Origin: Gautieria morchelliformis
Lineage: Eukaryota > Basidiomycota > Agaricomycetes > Gomphales > Gomphaceae
Length of the DNA: 64,000 nt
Assembly: GCA_015179125.1 (NCBI GenBank)
Contig: WHVA01000008.1
Location: 124,001-188,000, forward strand
Direction of reading: 5' to 3'
This document shows positions 38,375 through 52,868 of this stretch, piece by piece; positions within the stretch are counted from its first letter, which is position 1; each line of letters starts with the position of its first letter. The position numbers were made by a program, and so were the translations under genes. The notes under the pieces were generated by a model. That model ran no database searches. It had not been told where the DNA came from and worked only from the letters and a program-made list of their open reading frames with translations.

Positions 38375-38498
38375 ATGCAAAGTAAGACATAGTTTCGACC
38401 TCTCTCAGTGACAATTAAATTCACTGAGAGAGGCAAGTAAATTAGTTTTATTTCCTTCAATTTGTTGACCAAGAAATCTTGTAGTAAATTCATTTCCT
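38375..38498 (+). repeat. Copia-LTR-like fragment
   Basis: CTCTCAGTGACAATTAAATT, TTCACTGAGAGAGGCAAGT and a following TTTTATTTCC...TTGTAGTAAATT correspond to the R/U5 part of the Copia LTRs (10838-10925). It truncates the 3' end of the decayed MULE gene. Confidence 0.6.
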
Positions 38499-41400
38499 GT
38501 CCATGCATTGAGTCGGTCAAAAAGTTGTGCAAGTGGCACTTTTGGCCCACCAAAGGCCTTGTGATTTGGTTTTCAGACTCCACATGGCCATTGGTCCTAA
38601 TGCCTGCAGTGAAAACCTGAGAGACCCATGCCCATGCCCAATGTTTGCAATCAGTGTACATCTGCCCTTCAAGATAGGGATGTGTGCGTGGGTACTTGGA
38701 TAGTAGTTTGTCCTACCCATGGTCAAATGCCTCACGTGACACAGCACAGTATACAGACCAGAAATCTCGAGTGAATGATTGGAACTGCCCTCCAAGCATA
38801 GGGCAAACATGTGAACAATCCTTCCACGAGCAGAGCTGTGTTCAAGAGGTGTGCATTGATACTTTTTCCTAAGCTACAATGCTGAGGACACATCATCCAG
38901 CTATACGACGCCACCATGCTACCAACCTAGGGAGCCTTTTTGCTTGCCCACTCACACTCCTTTGACAATATGCAGGCCCCTTTGCCCTTCAGCAGTCCCA
39001 TCGGGAAATGAATGATGCAGACAAAACAAATGGTATGTGGTAGGCATAATGTCTGCTGTGGCCACCCGTAGTGCTGCATCTCTATCTGACACAAATACTT
39101 CAGGTGCATGACATGCAGTTTCCAAGTGATTGTGTAAGACCCACGAATGGCTGGTAGCATCTGAAAGCAATACCAAACACTACAGCTATGTCCAAAGTTG
39201 TCGTCAATGCCAATATTGAGAGGGTATCCATACTGATTATGGTTATGGGAATTGTCATTAATTAGTATGTCATAGAACTGAGTAGCTAACTGAGCTTGTT
39301 CGGGTGACTGCCACCAAAGACCAATGACCACCTGAGAGTCATCAAGCCAGACTTCATATCACCAGGCCTCTCCATTGGCAATTTGAGAATCCAGGCGTGC
39401 TATTACTATGGTGATATCACCGCCCAGTCTAGAAACCTTGGTCCTACCTGCTGCACCAGCAGCATTCATGATGTTAGAAATCTGACAGTCCTCAAGGATA
39501 TTTCCTGGGAACTCCTGAGCTAGTATAGTCCTGAGATGGTCTTGGGTGAAGTTACCAGCACAGGCATATTGCCTTAAAGCTGGTTGCTGGTCAGGGGCTG
39601 GAGGCCGAGGCCAGCAGCCCCAGGAGCAAGTATAGCATCATGATTGTGAGTCCAATTGGTGGCAGTGACATGCTGTTGGTATGAGGGAAGAATGCAATTA
39701 ACATTGACATGAGCAAGACAATTCTTGCAAATGGACTTCCTGTCACAAAAATTGGATGGGTCAATATTGGGCTTGTGTTTTGGTGTGTGTGATGCATAAC
39801 ATTAGCAGCAATAGGTGACCTTCTTTAAGCAACTCTCTGCAGACCTGCAGACTTGTTTACTCTGCCCCACTCGTATCTTATTACCTCAAGACTTCTCAAA
39901 ATCATAGATTGTGCTGCATGCATCCTTGAGGCTCTCATACATGCTCAGGAGGTGGGGGGGCCCCATTTGGCACATCTTGGATGCCAGCAATGTCTGCATC
40001 ATCCCCATTGTAATTGGCTGATGACCCAGATTCCATGCCCTTGACTTTGGGGCAGCTTTGATGCTTCCCAAATACAAATCTCCAGATTTGCAGTTGGTCT
40101 GGTGCTGAGTGCATGCTGGTTCAACTTCATCTGTATCCAAACTAAGAACAATGACCTCATCCCTTGTAGAATGAATGGGTGTCACTGGGATATCCAAACC
40201 AGCAGTGGAAGATGTGATGTGGCGTCATTGAATCAAGGAAATGGGTGACAGTAAGTCTGATGAAGCAGAGGAAAGAATCTCAAGTATATCACTAGTCCCA
40301 TCATTATCAGAGGCACTAGTCATGTAAACATCATCTGGAGAAGCAGTCAAATCTATAAACGTTATCCTTGAAGGTGTTTTAATTGGACTTAGCATCTTGA
40401 TCATGTTGGTGGCTTCCCCCTGAGAATCAATGAGTGGTGCACGAAGGGGAAACATATCAATGTGGGTTGAATTCCCTAACTGCTTGGCAGTCAACAGTAA
40501 GTCCAGAGATGTTGCTGCAGTGGCCAGCAGTTCATGTATACTCAAGAGACGCAAGCTCAAGTGCAGGCTAACAGGAATATGAGTGATGAATAGTCAACTG
40601 AGGGTCAACTGAGGATAGACGAACCTGCAGTGTAGCTGCCGTGGACAATGCAATAGTGGATGCCAATGGTGATACTCTAGAATTACACCCAAAATTATGA
40701 TAGGGGTGTGAAGACTAACCTGGTCAATCAATTGAAGGCCTTGAAGAAGAACACAACACACGTCTGAACATTATACAGATTAAAATCATTGTATTCTACA
40801 CCAAAAATAGGTACCACTGAGTGGGAAGCATTGTGAAATAATGCAACATCAGTATTATCCATTTTGAACCAATCCACTGGTTGAACAAGCTATGACAAAA
40901 AAGGTGACTGGATATTAGACTTCCCCACATTTTATGCAATGCACCCCTTTTTCTACCATATGCATATGGTAAGTAACTAAGTTTCAAATCTATTCCTTAC
41001 GTCAGGTCCAGTTTCCAACTCAATGGAAGTGACTTGAGGTATCCGAAGCCCTCCAGGACCACAACAAACTGATAGGGGGGAAATTGAGGCCAGCGAATCT
41101 TTCCCAGATGTCACAGAGATTTTTGCTATAGACTTGTGGGTACTGATTGAATAAGAAGCTAGCAGCATTGTAGAAAGAAGTTGGCAAGAGGAGATGGGTT
41201 GGTACACCCCCTGTACCACTGTACAATAATCGAGGTACTCTTCACCAGTCAGTGTCCCAAGCAGCCACCTAGGAATGTCAGTGGTGCTAAGGAAGCCTAA
41301 CAAGGGAGACATGACACGCTGATGGGCAAGCCGTTCAAGTGCTGGTAAAGGTGTGTTGAGGGTTTGGGCTTGAAGTATGGAACTGCAGCTGAGTCAAAGA

Positions 41401-41558
41401 TGGGGGCTGTGATTATTGATGCTGATAAATATGTGGATCTAGCTCTTGTCAGTGCTAGAGCTTCTTACAGTAAATGTTCTCTTGGACTCACTTTACTCAT
41501 ATGAACCAATGATGTCTGTAGTTGTCCATCAATCATCAGTGTCAAAACTACAGCCTTC

Positions 41559-43136
41559 TGTCAAGATTGGTTTTTAGGCGTTAATATTGTGTATTAGTGA
41601 ACACAGCGAATGCCCGAATAACTTGTGTGAATAAGTATGCTGTTCGGCGAATAGATGAACCAATGAATGTTCACAAGGTAAGAGGGTTGCCCGAACGGGG
41701 CTCACCCTATCTACAGTCATAGCGAAATAGCCCATGGCACTTGACAATGTAACGTGCAAGGTCTCACGGAAGGGCTGTCTAAGTCTCGACAATCCCTTCA
41801 CCAACAGCACAGAAAATGGTTCGAAGGCTAAGGTAACGAAGATGAAGTATGAGAACTCACCAGTGATGCCTAAGTCCTCTGCTAGTTGAAGATGGAAATC
41901 TCCAAGAGAAGGCTTAAGACGATGACCACAGCGAGGTCAAATTTGCACAAGATGAACGAAGTATGATAATCGAACTGGAGATACATGCGAATGTAAACTA
42001 CTTATATTGAATGCTCGCAAGGTATTAGCGAATAGGAAAGAGGCCGTCGTGAGTCAGGGTCGGATAGGGGTGTGCAGTCATGATACTAAGTAGATGGAAT
42101 AAACATACAATAGAGTGAGGGAAGAATGCGAACATGAAATGACGGAGAGTAAAAGGGGGCGAAGGCAATTATGGACAAAACCATGTCTTGGGACCCGCAT
42201 ACATGCTACCCTGCATGGACTCTTCGTTTACTGGGTTGATCCCGCATGACCTATGGAAGGGACGTCCTGCGAACACACTTTGGCCATACGTGTTATATTA
42301 TGGATGGGAGATTAATCTCTATCCTATCACTCTTGCGCTGATACCGGCGCATCTATTACACGTACATGCGTTATCAGACGCACGCGCATCTAGCCGGCTC
42401 CTTTAACCCTGAGCCGGATTCCGGGGCCACTCGAGGCACAGATCCGAGATGGAGCGCAGAAGGCGCTCCATCGTTCCTGAATGACATATTAGCTCCACAG
42501 TAATATAGAATGAGCTCCACAGATCAAGGCACAAGTACCTAATGACCAGATAGGTACATACTCCAGCACCGGTGCATACATCATGCACCGGCGGCACCTG
42601 TTCACTCCACAAGCGTCATTCACATCTTTCATAGCATAGCTTCGTTCCAAGCTAGTTAAATAGCTAGGAAACATGTATAGAACTCAAGGCAGTAAGAAAC
42701 TCCATTTGTGCTATTGTAGCTGGCTGTATTGAAGCCACAGTTCTCGTCGTATTGGCCCCAGACTTGCTTCAGCCCTTAATTGGTGCTTGAAGACATTTCT
42801 CCTTAGTTCCCTTGACCCCTCATCATATACGTACGCAGCTGCTTGCGCGCCCTGACTTACAACAATACGAATGCCCAATGGGGTTGGATTATGAAGATGA
42901 TGGGGTTAATGATGAACCATCATGCCGGGTGAATGGTATAGATCATATTTGATGGCGTGCCTGCTGGCAAAATGCGCGAGCAGCGAATAGCGGTTCGGAG
43001 AATGGGGCAAACAGCGGGTAGAGTGGATGTGGAGGGGGAGTGGTCGGTGGGTGCGGCGAACTCTGGCGAAGATGCTAGGGAGTGACAAGGGGGAACATAG
43101 AGGCAGTGCGGTAGGAGAAATAGACCGGTCATGACA
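41559..43136. mobile_element. ~1-kb solo LTR (target duplication CCTTC) with a nested LTR
   Basis: TGTCAAGATTGG to GGTCATGACA with exact CCTTC duplications (41554-41558 and 43137-43141). Homologous copies in the same orientation are at 44741-45636 and 63005 onwards. The extra 579 bp compared with those copies is the nested LTR at 42291-42864 plus its 5-bp duplication. Confidence 0.92.
42291..42864. mobile_element. 574-bp solo LTR nested in another LTR (target duplication ATACG)
   Basis: TGTTATATTATGG to CTTACAACA with exact ATACG duplications (42286-42290 and 42865-42869). The homologous LTR at 63005 reads through this point uninterrupted (CCATACGAATGCCC near 63760), which confirms the insertion. 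Contains short palindromes such as GGAGCGCAGAAGGCGCTCC. Confidence 0.93.
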
Positions 43137-43151
43137 CCTTCATTCCACTGG

Positions 43152-43879
43152 TGTTACAATCATGCCACCTAACCATCTCCGCCACCTCTGGAACACTTCC
43201 ACACCCCCTCTGACTCTATTCTGCAACCTCCACCCTCGACCCCTTGTTCTTCAACACCCCTGACTGGCTCTATTCATCTATTCATCAGCCCCCATACTCA
43301 ACCCTTAGCACAGCAAGATATCATTCCTGGTTCATCAGGAATTCCATTTGTTCTGCTGTCTATTAGACTTATGCACCCTTTGTTATTTTGCCCATTGTTC
43401 TTGACTCTACCCTGCACCCCCTTGTAGTCCCCTTGTTCCATATTAGTTACTTGCCCCATATATATATCCGACTTCTGCTCCCTCTGGAATGTACTTAGTA
43501 CTACCCTATTACTTGTTGTCTCAGCTCTTTGTATAAAACCCCCTCATGTATGCCCTCCGTTCTGCAATCAGATAATCGACTTCGATACGTGAATCCCCTT
43601 GGATTGTCTCCTGTTCTTAGTACAGTGAGTCTTGCAAGCACTCTGTCTCTCTCTGCCCTCAACACTCTGTCTTCCACCTCTTCCGACCTCTGTTCTCTGA
43701 CCTCCAGTTCTTGACACTCCAGCCAAGGTCAAATTCCAAATCTTCTCCACCTCCACCTCATCCGATCTCCAGAACTCAAGTCCAAAATACCTAGGACAAT
43801 AGTTCATCAGGGGCACAACACATAAGTTGAATCCGCTGTCCTTTCCAGATCCATTCTCTGGGATTTCCGATATGTAACA
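43152..43879 (-). mobile_element. 728-bp solo LTR (target duplication ACTGG)
   Basis: TGTTACAATCATGCC to CGATATGTAACA, flanked by ACTGG (43147-43151 and 43880-43884). It is the inverted homologue of the LTR at 27493-28184. Only 15 bp separate it from the preceding LTR, so the MULE gene was hit twice at almost the same place. Confidence 0.92.
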
Positions 43880-44098
43880 ACTGGAGAAGGCAGCTCCCAT
43901 TGTTTTTACAATCATTTGAAGATCATCTGAGTGAGGTATTTTTTCACCTGGCTGTACTGTCAGGCTTTTTGCATTCGTTGGTATTGATGTTTCATATGAC
44001 CACAACATGAGGGATTTGGCAGGCAGAATGCCAGGATATACTAAGCTGAGACTTTGACCAAAAGTGGTCTCTTGAAAGAAAGCCTCGGAGTAGCAAAC

Positions 44099-44527
44099 TG
44101 TTAGCAACTTGGGTTATGGCAGGGAAGGTTCTGTGGACTTTTTAGAAAGCTAGAATCAAATTCACTACATGATTTTGGGTCAACATGTTATAAAAGAAAT
44201 AAAGAATACTACTCACCTCTCTCAGTGAATTTATTGTCACTGAGAGAGGAGCGTTATGCTGTCTCAGAATGCATATACGTGCACCTGTCTTTTTAGCGCC
44301 CATGAGCTCGGACGTCGAAGCCATTTCAAACTCCGCTGGATGGAGCCGACTGTGAAAATAAAGAAAAGAAAACAAAATAGAAAGATCATGAGTGATCAGA
44401 GAATTTCAAAAATAATCAGGGAAGTGGATGCATGGTACAAGAACAATGTGAGACAGAATTGGAACAACACACAATGAATAGAATACATTATTCTTGATTT
44501 TGGTGCAGGAGCATATATGCACCAACA
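44099..44527 (-). mobile_element. Copia-type solo LTR (target duplication CAAAC)
   Basis: 429 bp, TGTTAGCAACTTGGG to TATGCACCAACA, the reverse complement of the Copia LTR at 10552 but diverged. Exact CAAAC duplications at 44094-44098 and 44528-44532. It splits the first coding segment of MULE copy 1. Confidence 0.93.
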
Positions 44528-44740
44528 CAAACATCCACACCAGGTATGGTGTATGTGTTGAAGTTAGAAGCTGGCATTGGAAGGTGTAAATGATGGATGA
44601 CTGCAAAAGACTTTGGATGACAGAACTGGTCTTGGGTTTTGAGTCATACATGCTTCACAGGTGTTAGCGCCATCTGGTGGTAAACGGTGGCAATTGCCAG
44701 TGAACACCGCTGGCCACCAGTGTCCAGCAGCACTTAATGC

Positions 44741-46741: not shown

Positions 46742-49700
46742 CTAAGTCTGATCGTGCCGAGTCCACGGATTAATGTGTCCAGCTGTTCTTGAGTCGACAT
46801 TGTTCAAGAGAGGTTTAAGAGCGGCTTGTGCTTCCTGGAAGACGGTACAGGCGTTGATTGACTGTGTGGATGGAGGGGGGGTACAATTTCTCGTGTGTGC
46901 TCTATCCAGTGGGTTTGAGACTTGTGCAACAGGTAGCGGGCGTGCACGAAGACTAAGCCGTTTTTCTGGAACAGCATGGGTCAGTGTGATGGGTGGGATT
47001 GAGCCAGCATCTAGACTAGGGTCCTGCCACCACCTACACCATATTTCAGATGCTGTTACTGTGGAGAGAGGTATGACTCACCTTTGACGCACAAGCACTA
47101 TGTGAAAAAGCATGCCTTGCACTCGGGATAAAACGGTAAAGTAATGGCGGCACGGGATGCCTAAATTACTGCCCATGCAGCAGTCACATACGTACCGTCC
47201 TGCATCCAGGATCGCCACAAGATGACTAGCGCCTGAGCTTAGGTGTATCACTCCAAGGAGATGGGTGACCGGCAAGGCTTGCTTCCGAATCAACATCATA
47301 AACCATTCTGTTGAGATGAGACGTGTATCATTGGTGAATGGGTCATGCATGTGCTAATTTTCTGAATGAATACAACGTGGCGAATATAGCGTAATCACAT
47401 ACCTTCTCTTCATTGCCTTGCCACTCGTATACCATCTCGTTCTCAACATGCACTGCATATTGCGTCTAGGCCATACACTATATCACTTACAAAGAAATGA
47501 TATAAATAGTTTGTCTCACCCATGATGTAACACCGTCAGGGAGTTGCAGAACCTCAACTCTGTAATACATAGATAATCCCATCTCACGGTAACAAGTTTG
47601 CAATGCAAACGGCCCTGCATACTGGCGTAGAAGTGTGAGTACTTTTGCAAAGAGCCGTTCGAGATTGGATTCGTGTTGTTTGCGTGATGACTACTGCATG
47701 TTTCAGATTGTTAACAGTAATAGAGACAAGATGACTGACCTGTCGCACCCATTCCTGTTCCTTAAGACTCTGACTTATGGTACGGTCATTCAGGGAATCA
47801 AAAAGCATTTTGGCTGACACCTTTGGCCCCCCGAAGACCTTGTTCACCCAGTTCTCAGACTCGCAACGTCCGTTAGTTCTGAGACCTGCCGTAAACCTCG
47901 GTGCAACCCAGGCATGGGCCCACTGCTCTCGGACAGGGTATAGCTCTTTTTCAAGATATCTTCGGCTAGATGGAAAGCGATCTAGAAGAGACTCCCAGGC
48001 TTGTTCGAACGCTTCAGGTGACACAGCTCAATACACTTTCCAAAATCCTTGAGTGAACCTATCCCAGTGCACTCCAAGTGTTCTGTGCAGGTTAAGTGTG
48101 ACATTGCCATCAAGGTGATGGAGACAGAGCACATGAAATGTGCTTGGCAGTTCTTGAGCTACTGCTTGAAGTAGAGAGGGGTCACGGTCGGATCCAAGCA
48201 CTTCTGGCGGGAGCCGTGCAGTGAGGAGATGGTTCCGAATAACCCATCGATGAGTTTGTATGTCTTCACAAGCTTGAAGCGCATACCAGATGTTGCGTGA
48301 GTTGGCAAAATTGTCAATAATTATCCCAATGTTCAGAGGATAACGATATTGATTACGGTTTGCTGCATTGTCCGTTATAAGGATATCTGAGAACCTTCGT
48401 GCCAATGCGGCCTGTTCAGGCGACCGCCACCAGAGCCCTGTAACTTTCCCAATGTCATCAAGATTCAAATAATAGTGCCAACCCTCTCCTGTTGCACATT
48501 TTTCCTGGAGACTATGGATAATGGCAGCAAAGTCCCCACCTAGTTCATCTATGTCATTTCGACTCTGTGCTTGGGCATCGTTGATCAGATTGGATACTTG
48601 ACGTGGTTTGAGGTCATGCTCGGGAAAGGACTGTGAAAGGATGGCCTGAATCTGGCGCCGAGAGAAGGATGGGTTGTTGGCATAGGTCTGTATGAGGGCA
48701 CGCTGTGCATCTGTGGCTGGACGTGGAGCTGAGGCACCCACTTCCAAATTACGGTTATGGTTATGTGTGTAATCGGCCCAGGTCAGAGTATAGACAGTTG
48801 CGCCGACACAACGGTTAAGATTATAGTGCACTTTACAGTCTGTTTTGATTGTCTTGCCTTGCCGGTGGTCACTCGGGTCAATAGCTGGGTTGTGCATTGG
48901 CTGGTTAGTCCGATAGCTGTGACACCGCATCATTATTTTTTTGGGAAGCCCATCCTCATCACCTTCCATCCTCTTGCTCTGACCAATGCGCATCTTATAT
49001 CCTCGTTTCTCCTCGTAGCGGATAATCTCCACCTTGGCCTCATGCAGATTGGAATATGTTGTGCCAATACGTGGGGCACCAGATGGGACCACTTCAGTTA
49101 CTGGGTAGCCATACCTTTTGGCATATGGCTGCGAGTGAACGGTTAGAGCCAACGATTTCGAGTGTGATGATTTGGGCATAGGAAAGGCCAGTGGGGAGTC
49201 TGTTAAGTCAATTGGACTGTCATTGAGCTGAACTTTTACATAAGAAGACTGTTTCTGTGGCATCTGCGGTGAAAGTACATTCATGTGATGGTGCTTCTTG
49301 ACCAGCCTTGATGTGTTCTCGCTATCTGAAGTATCATATGACCGAGTCTCCGGGCTCCAATCCAAATCCAAGTCCGAGTCAGAAACCTCTATCACTGACA
49401 TTTCATGCAATCCTGGCGATGATTGCATGCCTGTCAAGTCTATTACAGAAATGGGGGAGTCTGGAGCCACTGGCAAGTTGAGTGTGAGATCTGCTGGACC
49501 GGGTTCCATTTTAGCTTGCTTCACTGAAGGTACTATTATCGCATCTAATTGGGGATCACGACCTTGGAGTTTATCCAGTGAGACAAAAGCTATAGGTGGT
49601 GGTTTTATGTGCAATGCTGGCTGAAATACTCATTACGGAAAGTTAACACATAGACGGACATGAACTTACTAGAAGTGGTGCTGAGACACTTGCCTTAGCG

Positions 49701-51137
49701 TCAATGCGCTTCACAACCTGGTCACTGAACGTGAAAATGGGATGTGCAAACTACATAATCCACCTCTATATCATCATATACCTCTCGGAATCAAGGCTTT
49801 ACAGCACGTACCTCAATGTCTAACACATTGTAGTCCTGATAGGGAATAGTCACATCAGGCAGGGTATGGTTTATAGGATTGTGGCATAATTCTTCATCGA
49901 CGCGACAAGCCCATGTCCATTCAGAGGGTAGCTACAACAAATTAGTGAGAAATAATAGATCTCAGTCTCAAACTGGAATACATACCCCATGATGCTGCGA
50001 ACAAAGGTGGTACGTGATCAAATCATATATCCATTGATCACGAACCACTGTTGATCGAGCAGGCGTCCAGGTAGGAACTGTGGCATCCATGTGTTGTTCA
50101 ATCGCATTGAGGGCGATCAAGGTACAGCTGCCACTGCCGGCAGGCTGCATTGGCCCACTCTCGACAACCAATGCCATAATTTCAGGAAACCTTAAGCCTG
50201 ACAAAACCCAATTCATGACTGGGAGTACATCTATGTGAGGGGCCTTCCCCATAGAGTCCCGGTGCTGTATAGTGCTCGGACGACTATATGTATATAGATA
50301 CGCAGACGCATGTCCCTGTTCAATGATTTCGAAGCTAAAACCGCGGATGCGTGCAGTTGCAAGTCGGTTACGGATGCCGATGATGTTTTTACTGTATAGA
50401 CGAGGGTTTTGGTGGTATAGTACCTTTGCATCCTCAAAGAATAAGGTGGGAAATACCAAGTGATGAGCTTCGCGAAGGGGATCTGCTGCAATGGTTCACC
50501 AATAGATCATCTCTGAGATCGCATTGATAACATCATCGTAAAGCCAACGTTCTCCAACTAGTGTACCGAGTTGCCACAAGGGCATGCCTGAGGCGGTTGA
50601 GAAACCTGACACCATAGTCGTGATCCACTCATTTTCGAACTTGACGAAGTTAGCAGGTGTAAGTAGCTTGGCCTCTGTAATACGATGTACAAGGGCACGC
50701 GCAAACATCACATGTGGTGTGTGGTTGTTAATTGAAACATAGAGTCGTACCTACCCACACATATCAGAAAACAACAAAGAAAAAAACTAGTAGGCAGCGG
50801 GACGCACTTTCGAGAGATGCACCTGAACCGTCTTTGGTCCTCTTGGTGTATTCATAACCAGTTCAACACCACTGATGCCACCAGCGGATGCCTGCTCCAG
50901 GCCGGGTAGAATATCTTGTAGAGAAACGATGTTCGGTATGAACTCGTCAATGGTGACTGTGGTGGACAATTTGGCGGAAGATGGCAGCGACAGGAGATAT
51001 GTCCATTTGTGGAGAGCATCGGCAGATAAGATGGTGGGTAACGCCAGAGACTTAGCTTCTCGGAAAGTCACAGTTCTGAAAAATTGCTCAGAAAACAGCA
51101 CATATGACGAGGAAGCATTAGCGAAGAGACCAGACAT
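46742..51137 (-). pseudogene. MULE transposase with N-terminal Ulp1/C48-like protease, nine exons, two in-frame TGAs
   Basis: Exons (minus): 51137-50808, 50750-49986, 49931-49812, 49750-49670, 49620-47740, 47690-47520, 47465-47403, 47353-47082 and 47033-46742. All eight introns are 48-61 nt GT..AG; total 1,324 codons. Residues 179-365 resemble the C48 fold: 'WLYDDVIN' (like the family's WLND), His257 in 'EQGHASAYLY', Asp275 in 'HRDSMG', and Gln312/Cys319 in 'QPAGSGSCTLIALN'. SUMO-interaction-like motifs are at 489-495 (ISVIDLT), 507-515 and 567-574. A FAR1-like Cys/His region follows, then the MULE core ('TDNAANRNQYRYPLNIG', 'GSDRDPSLLQ', 'LCLHHLDG') and a SWIM finger ('YVCDC...CRH'). TGA codons at 50496-50498 and 48028-48030 are the only breaks. 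The C48 call is motif-based. The protein would cut and move a Mutator-like element, possibly acting on SUMO or ubiquitin conjugates. Confidence 0.82.
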
Positions 51138-51184
51138 GTCCTAGAGCACTGAGTGTGGTAGCGTGAAAGGAAATGATATTGACC

Positions 51185-51560
51185 GTATTTATAGCTCACG
51201 AGGCAGCGAAGAAGAGGGAAAAAAAAAAGGAGAATACGTGTATTAACGGCAATACGGTTTGATACATCGGTCAGGTAAGGCCGCAGCCCTACTCAGCCTG
51301 AGAGAGAGACTGTACTGAAGGACATTTCACGGTCAGCGTATTACCAGGTGCGAATTCACTTCATAGCTCACCTAATAGCGAAGAAGGAGAAAAACGAGGA
51401 CACGAGTGTGTTAATGGCACACGCACAAGAATTTTGATATGTCGGTCAGGTAAGGCCGCAGCCACCCTTAGCTGCTGAGAAAGATATCGCATCGTCCCAG
51501 TGTCATTCCATGGTCTGAGCATCCCAAGTGCAAACTGACCTAGTGAGAAGGCGGTGAAAG
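51185..51560. repeat. Tandem duplication (~175 bp) upstream of the MULE/Ulp1 gene
   Basis: ATAGCTCAC...AGCGAAGAAG, GTGTATTAACGGCA-type and CGGTCAGGTAAGGCCGCAGC blocks occur twice, near 51190-51280 and 51365-51460. They lie within 50-400 bp of the start codon and could be promoter repeats or part of the element terminus. Confidence 0.65.
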
Positions 51561-51678
51561 ACTAGGGCTCGGCGCCGCACCGTATACGTGTACAGCCGTA
51601 CATGGTACGGTGGCATTACGGCCACCTCATCCGTACCGTATGTTGGGTTGCTAGAACACCGACGTATTGCAGTACCAG

Positions 51679-51715
51679 TGCTCATCGGGTCATTCAGAAA
51701 GACCCGACGAGCACT
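51679..51715. other. 14-bp stem hairpin
   Basis: GTGCTCATCGGGTC, nine bases, then GACCCGACGAGCAC: a stem with one mismatch. It is in a GC-rich patch with other short palindromes (for example CCGTATACG, GTACATGGTAC) upstream of the MULE/Ulp1 gene. Confidence 0.6.
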
Positions 51716-51837
51716 GCAACCGCGACCCATACCTATTTGGCCCTGGAGGTATGATGATATAAGCGGCATCCGAGAATTCCGAGAATTCGGTAGCAACCCT
51801 CGCAAAGTTCATCTTTGCGGATGATTCAGCAGAAAAC

Positions 51838-52868
51838 CCGGGTTGTTTTTCCCACGGGGGGTTGCCACACAGAATTATCCTATAATATACTATCTATAGC
51901 TACTGCATCACAGGCGTCAACATTTGGACATTTGGAGTTTCTGTAAGTATGATATTGGGGTATTAGTTCTTCGTAGGCTGTGATCTTCTCATTGGGCGGG
52001 CGGGGAGGGGGACGTGGGGAGAGGGGAGGCGAGGAGTGTGATGTACCAAGGGATGATCTCAGACGAACGGTGCGTGGAGGCTTCAGTGCGACGCGAGCTG
52101 TGCATGTGGTACTTATTTAAATTGTATCCCTAGTACTCGCTGTTGCGCTAAGCCCGAAGGTAGCGCGGACGGGATGACCATGACATGCTTGCTACGCATA
52201 TGGAGCTTGAACACCGAGATACATAATCTGGCGCACCTGGAACGATGCCATGGACGGCAAGATTGGTGGGGGCTCATGAGCGAAGTCAGTACCGAACCAT
52301 TATTTGTTTCAGTCAATTCAGCTTTGAACAGGTCGATTCCTTGCTCAGTGCTCAACGAGTTCAATGTTGCCACAGGTATCATGCAATATGAAATGGTGAT
52401 TACAGTGATATAGGAGACGGAGACGCCTGGTTGTTAAAAAAAATGTACGGGTTGTACGGTATGGTTGATCGATCGAGCTGGCGTTTTGTGTCTTGAAATG
52501 GGCGGATGCAGCAAAATTTAAGGAGTGTAATGTTCCAATGATACGAAGACACTATTACGCGACCTAGTCGACTACGGCCAAAATGACCCGTCAAACTACA
52601 TAGTTAAGTACCGACGTGTTTTAAATCTCCTCCATCTCCGACTATTCTGAACCTGCCAGGAGGGGACTTTAGGGCAGGGGTCTGAAAAACACCTGACACT
52701 TTCTGCTATCAAGCCGGCCACATTGAAGACGTTCAGCGCGAACGCGCCTTTGGGAAGGGGGATGGGGCCGGGGATTGCACCCGTCGAGCAGTCGTCACCC
52801 CTGGTGGGCGCGGCGAAATATGAGTAAGCATCCAGGCAGAAGAGGTCTGGAAGAGAGAGACGAACTCA
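51838..52868. other. No recognisable gene
   Basis: Unique-looking sequence with a few open frames under 90 codons on both strands (for example 52113-52382 minus), none with known motifs or a supporting splice pattern. The base composition is closer to typical genic DNA than the surrounding TEs. Confidence 0.4.

What the first reader, a model, noticed from the sequence alone, without database searches (positions are those of the whole stretch)
46742..51137. Transposase fused to a SUMO-protease-like domain and SUMO-interaction-like motifs
One nine-exon model on the minus strand joins a C48/Ulp1-like fold (WLYDDVIN, His257, Asp275, Gln312 and Cys319 in family-like spacing), three hydrophobic-acidic stretches of SUMO-interaction type (ISVIDLT, SVIEVSDSD, SPIDLTDS at residues 489-574), a FAR1-like region, the MULE core and a SWIM finger. 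Some plant MULEs are known to carry captured Ulp1-like genes as separate frames. Here the protease is N-terminal to the transposase in one spliced frame, together with SUMO-binding-like motifs. That suggests an element that both recognises and edits SUMO (or ubiquitin) marks, for example on silencing chromatin. The domain calls are by eye; the function is inference.
Basis: partly seen in the sequence, partly recalled or inferred. Interest (0 to 1): 0.88.

Follow-up and report, generated by a model that had tools for sequence, protein, structure and literature searches.

The report
Fungal jumping gene with SUMO-protease domain
This stretch is a worn-out copy of a fungal jumping gene whose cutting enzyme is fused to a domain that appears to fold like enzymes that strip the protein tag SUMO, with SUMO-binding-type motifs between the two; related combinations are known in plants and animals, and this arrangement looks like a new variant.

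The parts
46748..51880 (-). 3'-truncated copy of the MULE family (family A)
   Evidence: 96-99% DNA identity to copies on C194, C91, C482, C219, C856, C537, C242; homology starts at 51880 and stops at 46748, while fuller copies run about 620 bp further to the second TIR
51840..51880 (-). 5' terminal inverted repeat, 41 bp
   Evidence: the same 41 bp is found inverted at the 3' end of fuller copies; 38 places in the genome match the terminal 83 bp wholly or in part
50808..51137 (-). exon 1 (residues 1-110), N-terminal region also present in family B
   Evidence: spliced model; 37-38% identity to C772 and C670
49986..50750 (-). exon 2 (residues 111-365), Ulp1/SENP-like domain
   Evidence: catalytic pattern; homologues P0001-P0004; fold of P0001
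50496..50498 (-). in-frame TGA at residue 195, inside the protease domain of the window copy
50310..50312 (-). His257 codon (catalytic His)
   Evidence: homologue's His pairs with Ulp1 His in hhalign
50256..50258 (-). Asp275 codon (catalytic Asp)
50145..50147 (-). Gln312 codon (oxyanion Gln)
50124..50126 (-). Cys319 codon (catalytic Cys)
49812..49931 (-). exon 3 (residues 366-405), linker, similar in Ramaria protein P0002
49670..49750 (-). exon 4 (residues 406-432), linker
49432..49452 (-). SUMO-interaction-type motif 1, ISVIDLT (489-495)
49372..49398 (-). SUMO-interaction-type motif 2, SVIEVSDSD (507-515)
49195..49218 (-). SUMO-interaction-type motif 3, SPIDLTDS (567-574)
47740..49620 (-). 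exon 5 (residues 433-1059): SIM linker, FAR1-like region, MULE catalytic core
48112..48381 (-). MULE transposase domain (PF10551)
   Evidence: E 2.8e-8, 34.5 bits, cut-off 27.6
48028..48030 (-). in-frame TGA at residue 963 of the window copy
47520..47690 (-). exon 6
47403..47465 (-). exon 7
47082..47353 (-). exon 8 with SWIM-type motif (about 47129-47191)
46748..47033 (-). exon 9, cut short and frameshifted in the window copy; exon 10 with CX2CX4HX4C knuckle absent

Best explanation
The feature is a decayed copy of a Mutator-like element whose transposase carries, N-terminal to its DNA-binding and DDE parts, a Ulp1/SENP-fold cysteine protease domain and a linker with three SUMO-interaction-type motifs. 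What it is: supported by sequence and structure comparison (about 0.93). In intact ancestors the protease was probably catalytically competent (inferred from retained His-Asp-Gln-Cys, about 0.75) and probably acted on SUMO rather than another ubiquitin-like tag (inferred from the closest folds and the neighbouring motifs, about 0.6). Most likely mechanism (inferred, about 0.35): the linker docks the transposase on SUMO-rich chromatin or repair complexes at element ends, and the protease strips SUMO there, or from the transposase itself, so that silencing or SUMO-dependent control of transposition is locally relieved. The window copy itself can do none of this.
Against: Pfam C48 recognises neither exon 2 nor P0001-P0004, though it recognises the genome's own Ulp1 at 4.7e-27. 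Profiles with P0001-P0004 added lost the SENP hits: one unrelated enzyme at 0.96, nothing; P0001 alone hit two kinases weakly. hhalign probability is only 0.9-8.1%. Whether P0001 and P0004 are fused to a transposase is unknown (contigs of 2045 and 2730 bases). A third transposase group (C253, C410, C648; 57-58% identity) shows no protease: no match, and none better than E 0.05 in about 4 kb upstream on C253 and C410. SIM tests: an acid-weighted definition found 1 hit in family A, P 0.25; strict test of family B P 0.12. P0002 and P0003 fail the strict signature and P0004 fails both patterns; the core pattern alone is not rare in shuffles. C537 has lost His257. Changes among family A copies are near neutral. 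No transcript or activity data.
Confidence: 0.58

Rival explanations
1. Pseudoprotease: the Ulp1 fold is kept only to bind SUMO or another ubiquitin-like tag and no longer cuts.
For: The Trp that usually follows the catalytic His (recalled; seen in Ulp1 and SENP1) is Ala or Tyr in the rows that keep the His; no activity data; the copy on C537 lost the His.
Against: His, Asp, Gln and Cys are kept in family A, family B, P0001 and P0002, and His, Asp and Cys in P0004, at 27-62% identity to P0001.
Confidence: 0.17
2. Deubiquitinase or deneddylase instead of a SUMO protease.
Against: Foldseek's first six and VIA-align's first nine rows are SUMO proteases; SUMO-type motifs lie next to the domain.
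Confidence: 0.2
3. Two genes in one element: a protease ending after exon 2 and a transposase starting in exon 5.
For: Exon 2 read on into intron 2 meets a stop after five codons; no RNA evidence.
Against: Exon 3 is similar in protein sequence in families A and B, and exon 3-4 sequence is joined to the protease in the Ramaria protein P0002; splice sites are kept in the six copies compared.
Confidence: 0.1
4. Passenger capture (Pack-MULE type): a host Ulp1 fragment picked up without function in the element.
For: MULEs often capture gene fragments; ULP capture is reported as recurrent in plants (PMC2528002, passages); a related transposase group here has no detectable protease.
Against: Same domain in the same N-terminal place in two families that differ by half or more of their residues, with catalytic residues kept; the genome's own Ulp1 is too distant to be a recent source.
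Confidence: 0.1

Closest known systems
Plant MULEs with Ulp1 domains (KAONASHI/KI-MULE of Arabidopsis; melon, rice, grapevine MULEs)
   Same: Mutator-like element that carries a Ulp1 domain (PMC2528002 and PMC13317346, passages read)
   Different: In the passages the Ulp1 part is a separate gene, downstream of or opposite to the transposase, or part of a VANC-type gene; here it is N-terminal in the transposase frame, in a fungus, with SIM-type motifs
Mutator elements with Ulp1 in hydra and lancelet, and Ginger1 transposases with C-terminal Ulp1 or OTU
   Same: Ulp1-type protease encoded with a DDE transposase (PMC2836005, passages read)
   Different: In Ginger1 the protease is C-terminal and the transposase is of another superfamily; the domain order in the animal Mutator proteins was not seen here
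CACTA elements with ULP domains, and rice proteins with Tnp2 plus ULP1
   Same: transposase domain and Ulp1 domain in one protein (PMC2528002, passage)
   Different: CACTA, not MULE; plants
VANDAL elements with VANC/KIU anti-silencing proteins
   Same: MULE-encoded factor, some with a Ulp1 domain, that lowers methylation of its own family (PMC13317346 passages; PMC10398659 and PMC5735166 seen as listing only)
   Different: separate protein; no SIM linker mentioned in what was read; function of its Ulp1 part is called unknown
SENP5/SENP3/SENP2/SENP1 and yeast Ulp1
   Same: fold and His-Asp-Gln-Cys order
   Different: 10-18% identity over the aligned residues; not recognised by Pfam C48; fused to a transposase
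Fungal MULEs such as Hop
   Same: MULE superfamily
   Different: The fungal groups in the survey PMC6446971 list zinc fingers and FAR1; the words Ulp1, protease, peptidase, SUMO and C48 do not occur in its main text

Membership tests
Mutator-like elements (MULE) | MULE DDE transposase domain | tested here: met
   PF10551 E 2.8e-8, above cut-off
Mutator-like elements (MULE) | terminal inverted repeats | tested here: met
   41-bp TIRs in fuller copies; the window copy keeps only the 5' one
Mutator-like elements (MULE) | target-site duplication of about 8-11 bp (range recalled) | tested here: met
   9 bp: of 5 copies with both ends, perfect in 2, 8 of 9 in one, exchanged between the other two
Mutator-like elements (MULE) | SWIM zinc finger | tested here: inconclusive
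   motif present; Pfam E 0.03 and 0.16, under the cut-off
Mutator-like elements (MULE) | FAR1-type DNA-binding domain | tested here: inconclusive
   family B 26.9 bits, cut-off 28.1; family A not listed
Ulp1/SENP (CE clan, C48) | Ulp1 fold | tested here: met
Ulp1/SENP (CE clan, C48) | catalytic His, Asp, Gln, Cys in order | tested here: met
Ulp1/SENP (CE clan, C48) | Pfam PF02902 above its curated cut-off | tested here: not met
   no hit for exon 2 or P0001-P0004; so filed as Ulp1/SENP-like fold, not as a PF02902 member
Ulp1/SENP (CE clan, C48) | isopeptidase activity on SUMO | not testable with these tools
   needs biochemistry
SUMO-interacting motif protein | hydrophobic core with acidic or Ser flank, or the DLT type (patterns recalled) | tested here: met
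   three strict hits in family A, P 0.00015; one strict hit in family B, P 0.12, three by a looser pattern, P 0.007; a first acid-weighted definition found one in A and three in B
SUMO-interacting motif protein | binding to SUMO | not testable with these tools
   needs binding assay
KI-MULE / KIU | Ulp1 in a gene separate from the transposase | tested here: not met
   one spliced frame here, though without transcript proof

The most novel reading that the evidence does not exclude
A reader-eraser transposase: one protein that finds SUMO-marked chromatin or repair complexes through a triple SIM linker and removes SUMO with its own SENP-type domain, so that a cut-and-paste element in a mushroom edits the mark that silences or regulates it during transposition.
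Probability: 0.28. Interest if true: 0.8.

Novelty: new variant of a known kind. Interest (0 to 1): 0.58.

Why it matters
Ulp1-type proteases turn up repeatedly in unrelated transposons of plants and animals, and their role there is described as unknown. A fungal family in which protease, SUMO-binding-type linker and transposase sit in one polypeptide, present in two diverged families, gives a compact system to test whether mobile elements edit SUMO to escape silencing or to steer repair.

Tried and rejected
Pfam C48 on exon 2 and on four homologues: nothing. Full-length protein search: none at E<=0.001 among the 8000 candidates scored. Two PDB profile searches lost the SENP signal; P0001 alone hit kinases. 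AlphaFold on the family A exon with a shallow alignment: pLDDT 32.5, not used. Viral contigs with the transposase ORF: no match. Plasmids with a linker peptide: no match. A first, acid-weighted SIM definition found one motif in family A, P 0.25, and three in family B, P 0.005; the patterns used afterwards are recalled from the SIM literature and were chosen after that first try, so the P of 0.00015 is somewhat optimistic. The signature patterns were written after seeing the sequence; one search used gapped rows for P0001-P0003 and is superseded. Selection test among nine copies: ratios 0.53-0.91, near neutral; C458 is probably misaligned in part. KDZ/Zisupton elements were considered (recalled) and dropped because the core is MULE; the paper on them held none of the searched words protease, Mutator, MULE, SUMO, peptidase. 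A third transposase group was checked late for the protease, with a negative result. Paper searches: MULE or Mutator with Ulp1 in fungi or basidiomycetes gave no paper holding all terms; looser searches showed 20 of 500, 20 of 1580, 20 of 158, 16 of 16, 2 of 2 and 8 of 2102, none about a fungal MULE with a Ulp1 domain by title. Only open-licence PMC papers are searched and most rows were unseen, so this is no proof of absence from print.

Full report
What is there. On the minus strand the window holds a copy of a Mutator-like element. Homology to other copies in the same genome begins at 51880 with a 41-bp terminal repeat and stops at 46748, while fuller copies on C194, C91, C219, C856 and C242 run on to the inverted 41 bp at the other end, giving elements of about 5.75 kb, about 6.5 kb for C242, which has insertions. 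Eleven loci and the window were examined for ends; of the five copies with both ends, two have perfect 9-bp target duplications, one has 8 of 9, and two have exchanged flanks. 38 places match the terminal 83 bp wholly or in part. The 533-aa ORF of the window matches 39 places, five of them, the window included, over residues 1-533.

Gene. The spliced model starts at 51137. The eight introns left in the window copy, nine in the fuller copies, are 48-61 nt, GT-AG, and of identical length in each of the six copies compared wherever they are present. The product of fuller copies is about 1430 aa. In the window copy there are stops at residues 195 and 963, a 2-base deletion in exon 9, and the last exon with a CX2CX4HX4C knuckle is missing. 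Each of the other five copies aligned has lesions of its own: C194 two stops, C91 one stop and a frameshift near the end, C219, C856 and C482 frameshifts, C856 also stops, C482 also a truncation. C91 is open through residue 1213.

Fusion and linker. Family B, a sister family, has copies on C670, C772, C235 and C462 and a broken one in the window at 44098-38498. It is about 50% identical in the transposase (C462) and about 30% in the protease; C772 and the window's broken copy show N-terminal region, protease part and transposase in the same order, C670 was read for the N-terminal and protease part, and the C462 copy shows no match to the protease core. His, Asp, Gln and Cys are kept. P0002 runs from the protease into exon 3-4 sequence (26% over 89 residues, single-comparison E 4e-12). 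The family A linker holds three strict SIM patterns and the rest of the 1213 residues none. The family B linker of C462, otherwise dissimilar, holds FIDLT, SDIVEILSS and DEVIVLSSDTDE, all three counted only under the looser pattern and the acid-weighted one.

Against. A third group of copies (C253, C410, C648), 57-58% identical in the transposase, shows no protease: no match, and only chance-level matches in about 4 kb upstream on C253 and C410. So the protease is not universal among near relatives; it was lost there, or gained separately.

Mechanism. Supported: MULE element, shared frame, Ulp1-type fold in a homologue, conserved catalytic residues. Inferred: activity, SUMO as substrate, docking by the linker, and relief of silencing or of SUMO-dependent control during transposition. 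Plant precedent: VANC-type proteins, some with Ulp1 domains, lower methylation of their own elements, but the role of the Ulp1 part is called unknown (PMC13317346, passages). The Ginger paper says Ulp1 domains occur in Mutator elements of hydra, lancelet and plants and proposes a role in transposition or repair (PMC2836005, passages); rice proteins with Tnp2 and ULP1 are mentioned in PMC2528002 (passage).

Novelty. A Ulp1 domain in a MULE is known. An N-terminal SENP-like domain with a SIM-type linker in a fungal MULE was not seen in the searches made (partial listings) or in the passages of the MULE surveys read. It is a new variant of a known kind.

Noticed in passing
window 38498-44098, minus strand: A second, badly broken element of the sister family B lies just downstream in the same orientation, with an interrupted protease part and one piece inverted (38906-39010).
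   Followed up: partly
L042 (C219) and L044 (C856): The two copies have exchanged flanking 9-mers (GGGCGGGGA and CCAAATAGG), as if two insertions had recombined with each other, or the assembly joined them wrongly.
   Followed up: partly
G000 C378:5499-6122: Both terminal repeats only about 624 bp apart: a possible short non-autonomous derivative.
   Followed up: no
L049 (C462): A family B copy with a nearly open transposase (one TGA in the match) shows no match to the protease core, so some copies seem to have lost the protease.
   Followed up: no
C253, C410, C648 (L035-L037, L067, L068): A third transposase group, 57-58% identical to family A, without a detectable protease upstream (about 4 kb upstream read on C253 and C410, 1.5 kb on C648).
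   Followed up: partly
exon 2 across nine copies: 43 of 62 distinct changes in the protease region are C to T or G to A, which would fit decay by deamination of cytosines.
   Followed up: no
L041 (C482): This copy also breaks off in its 3' part (at the place matching window 47289) and abuts a repeat that is also found at window 44150-44535.
   Followed up: no
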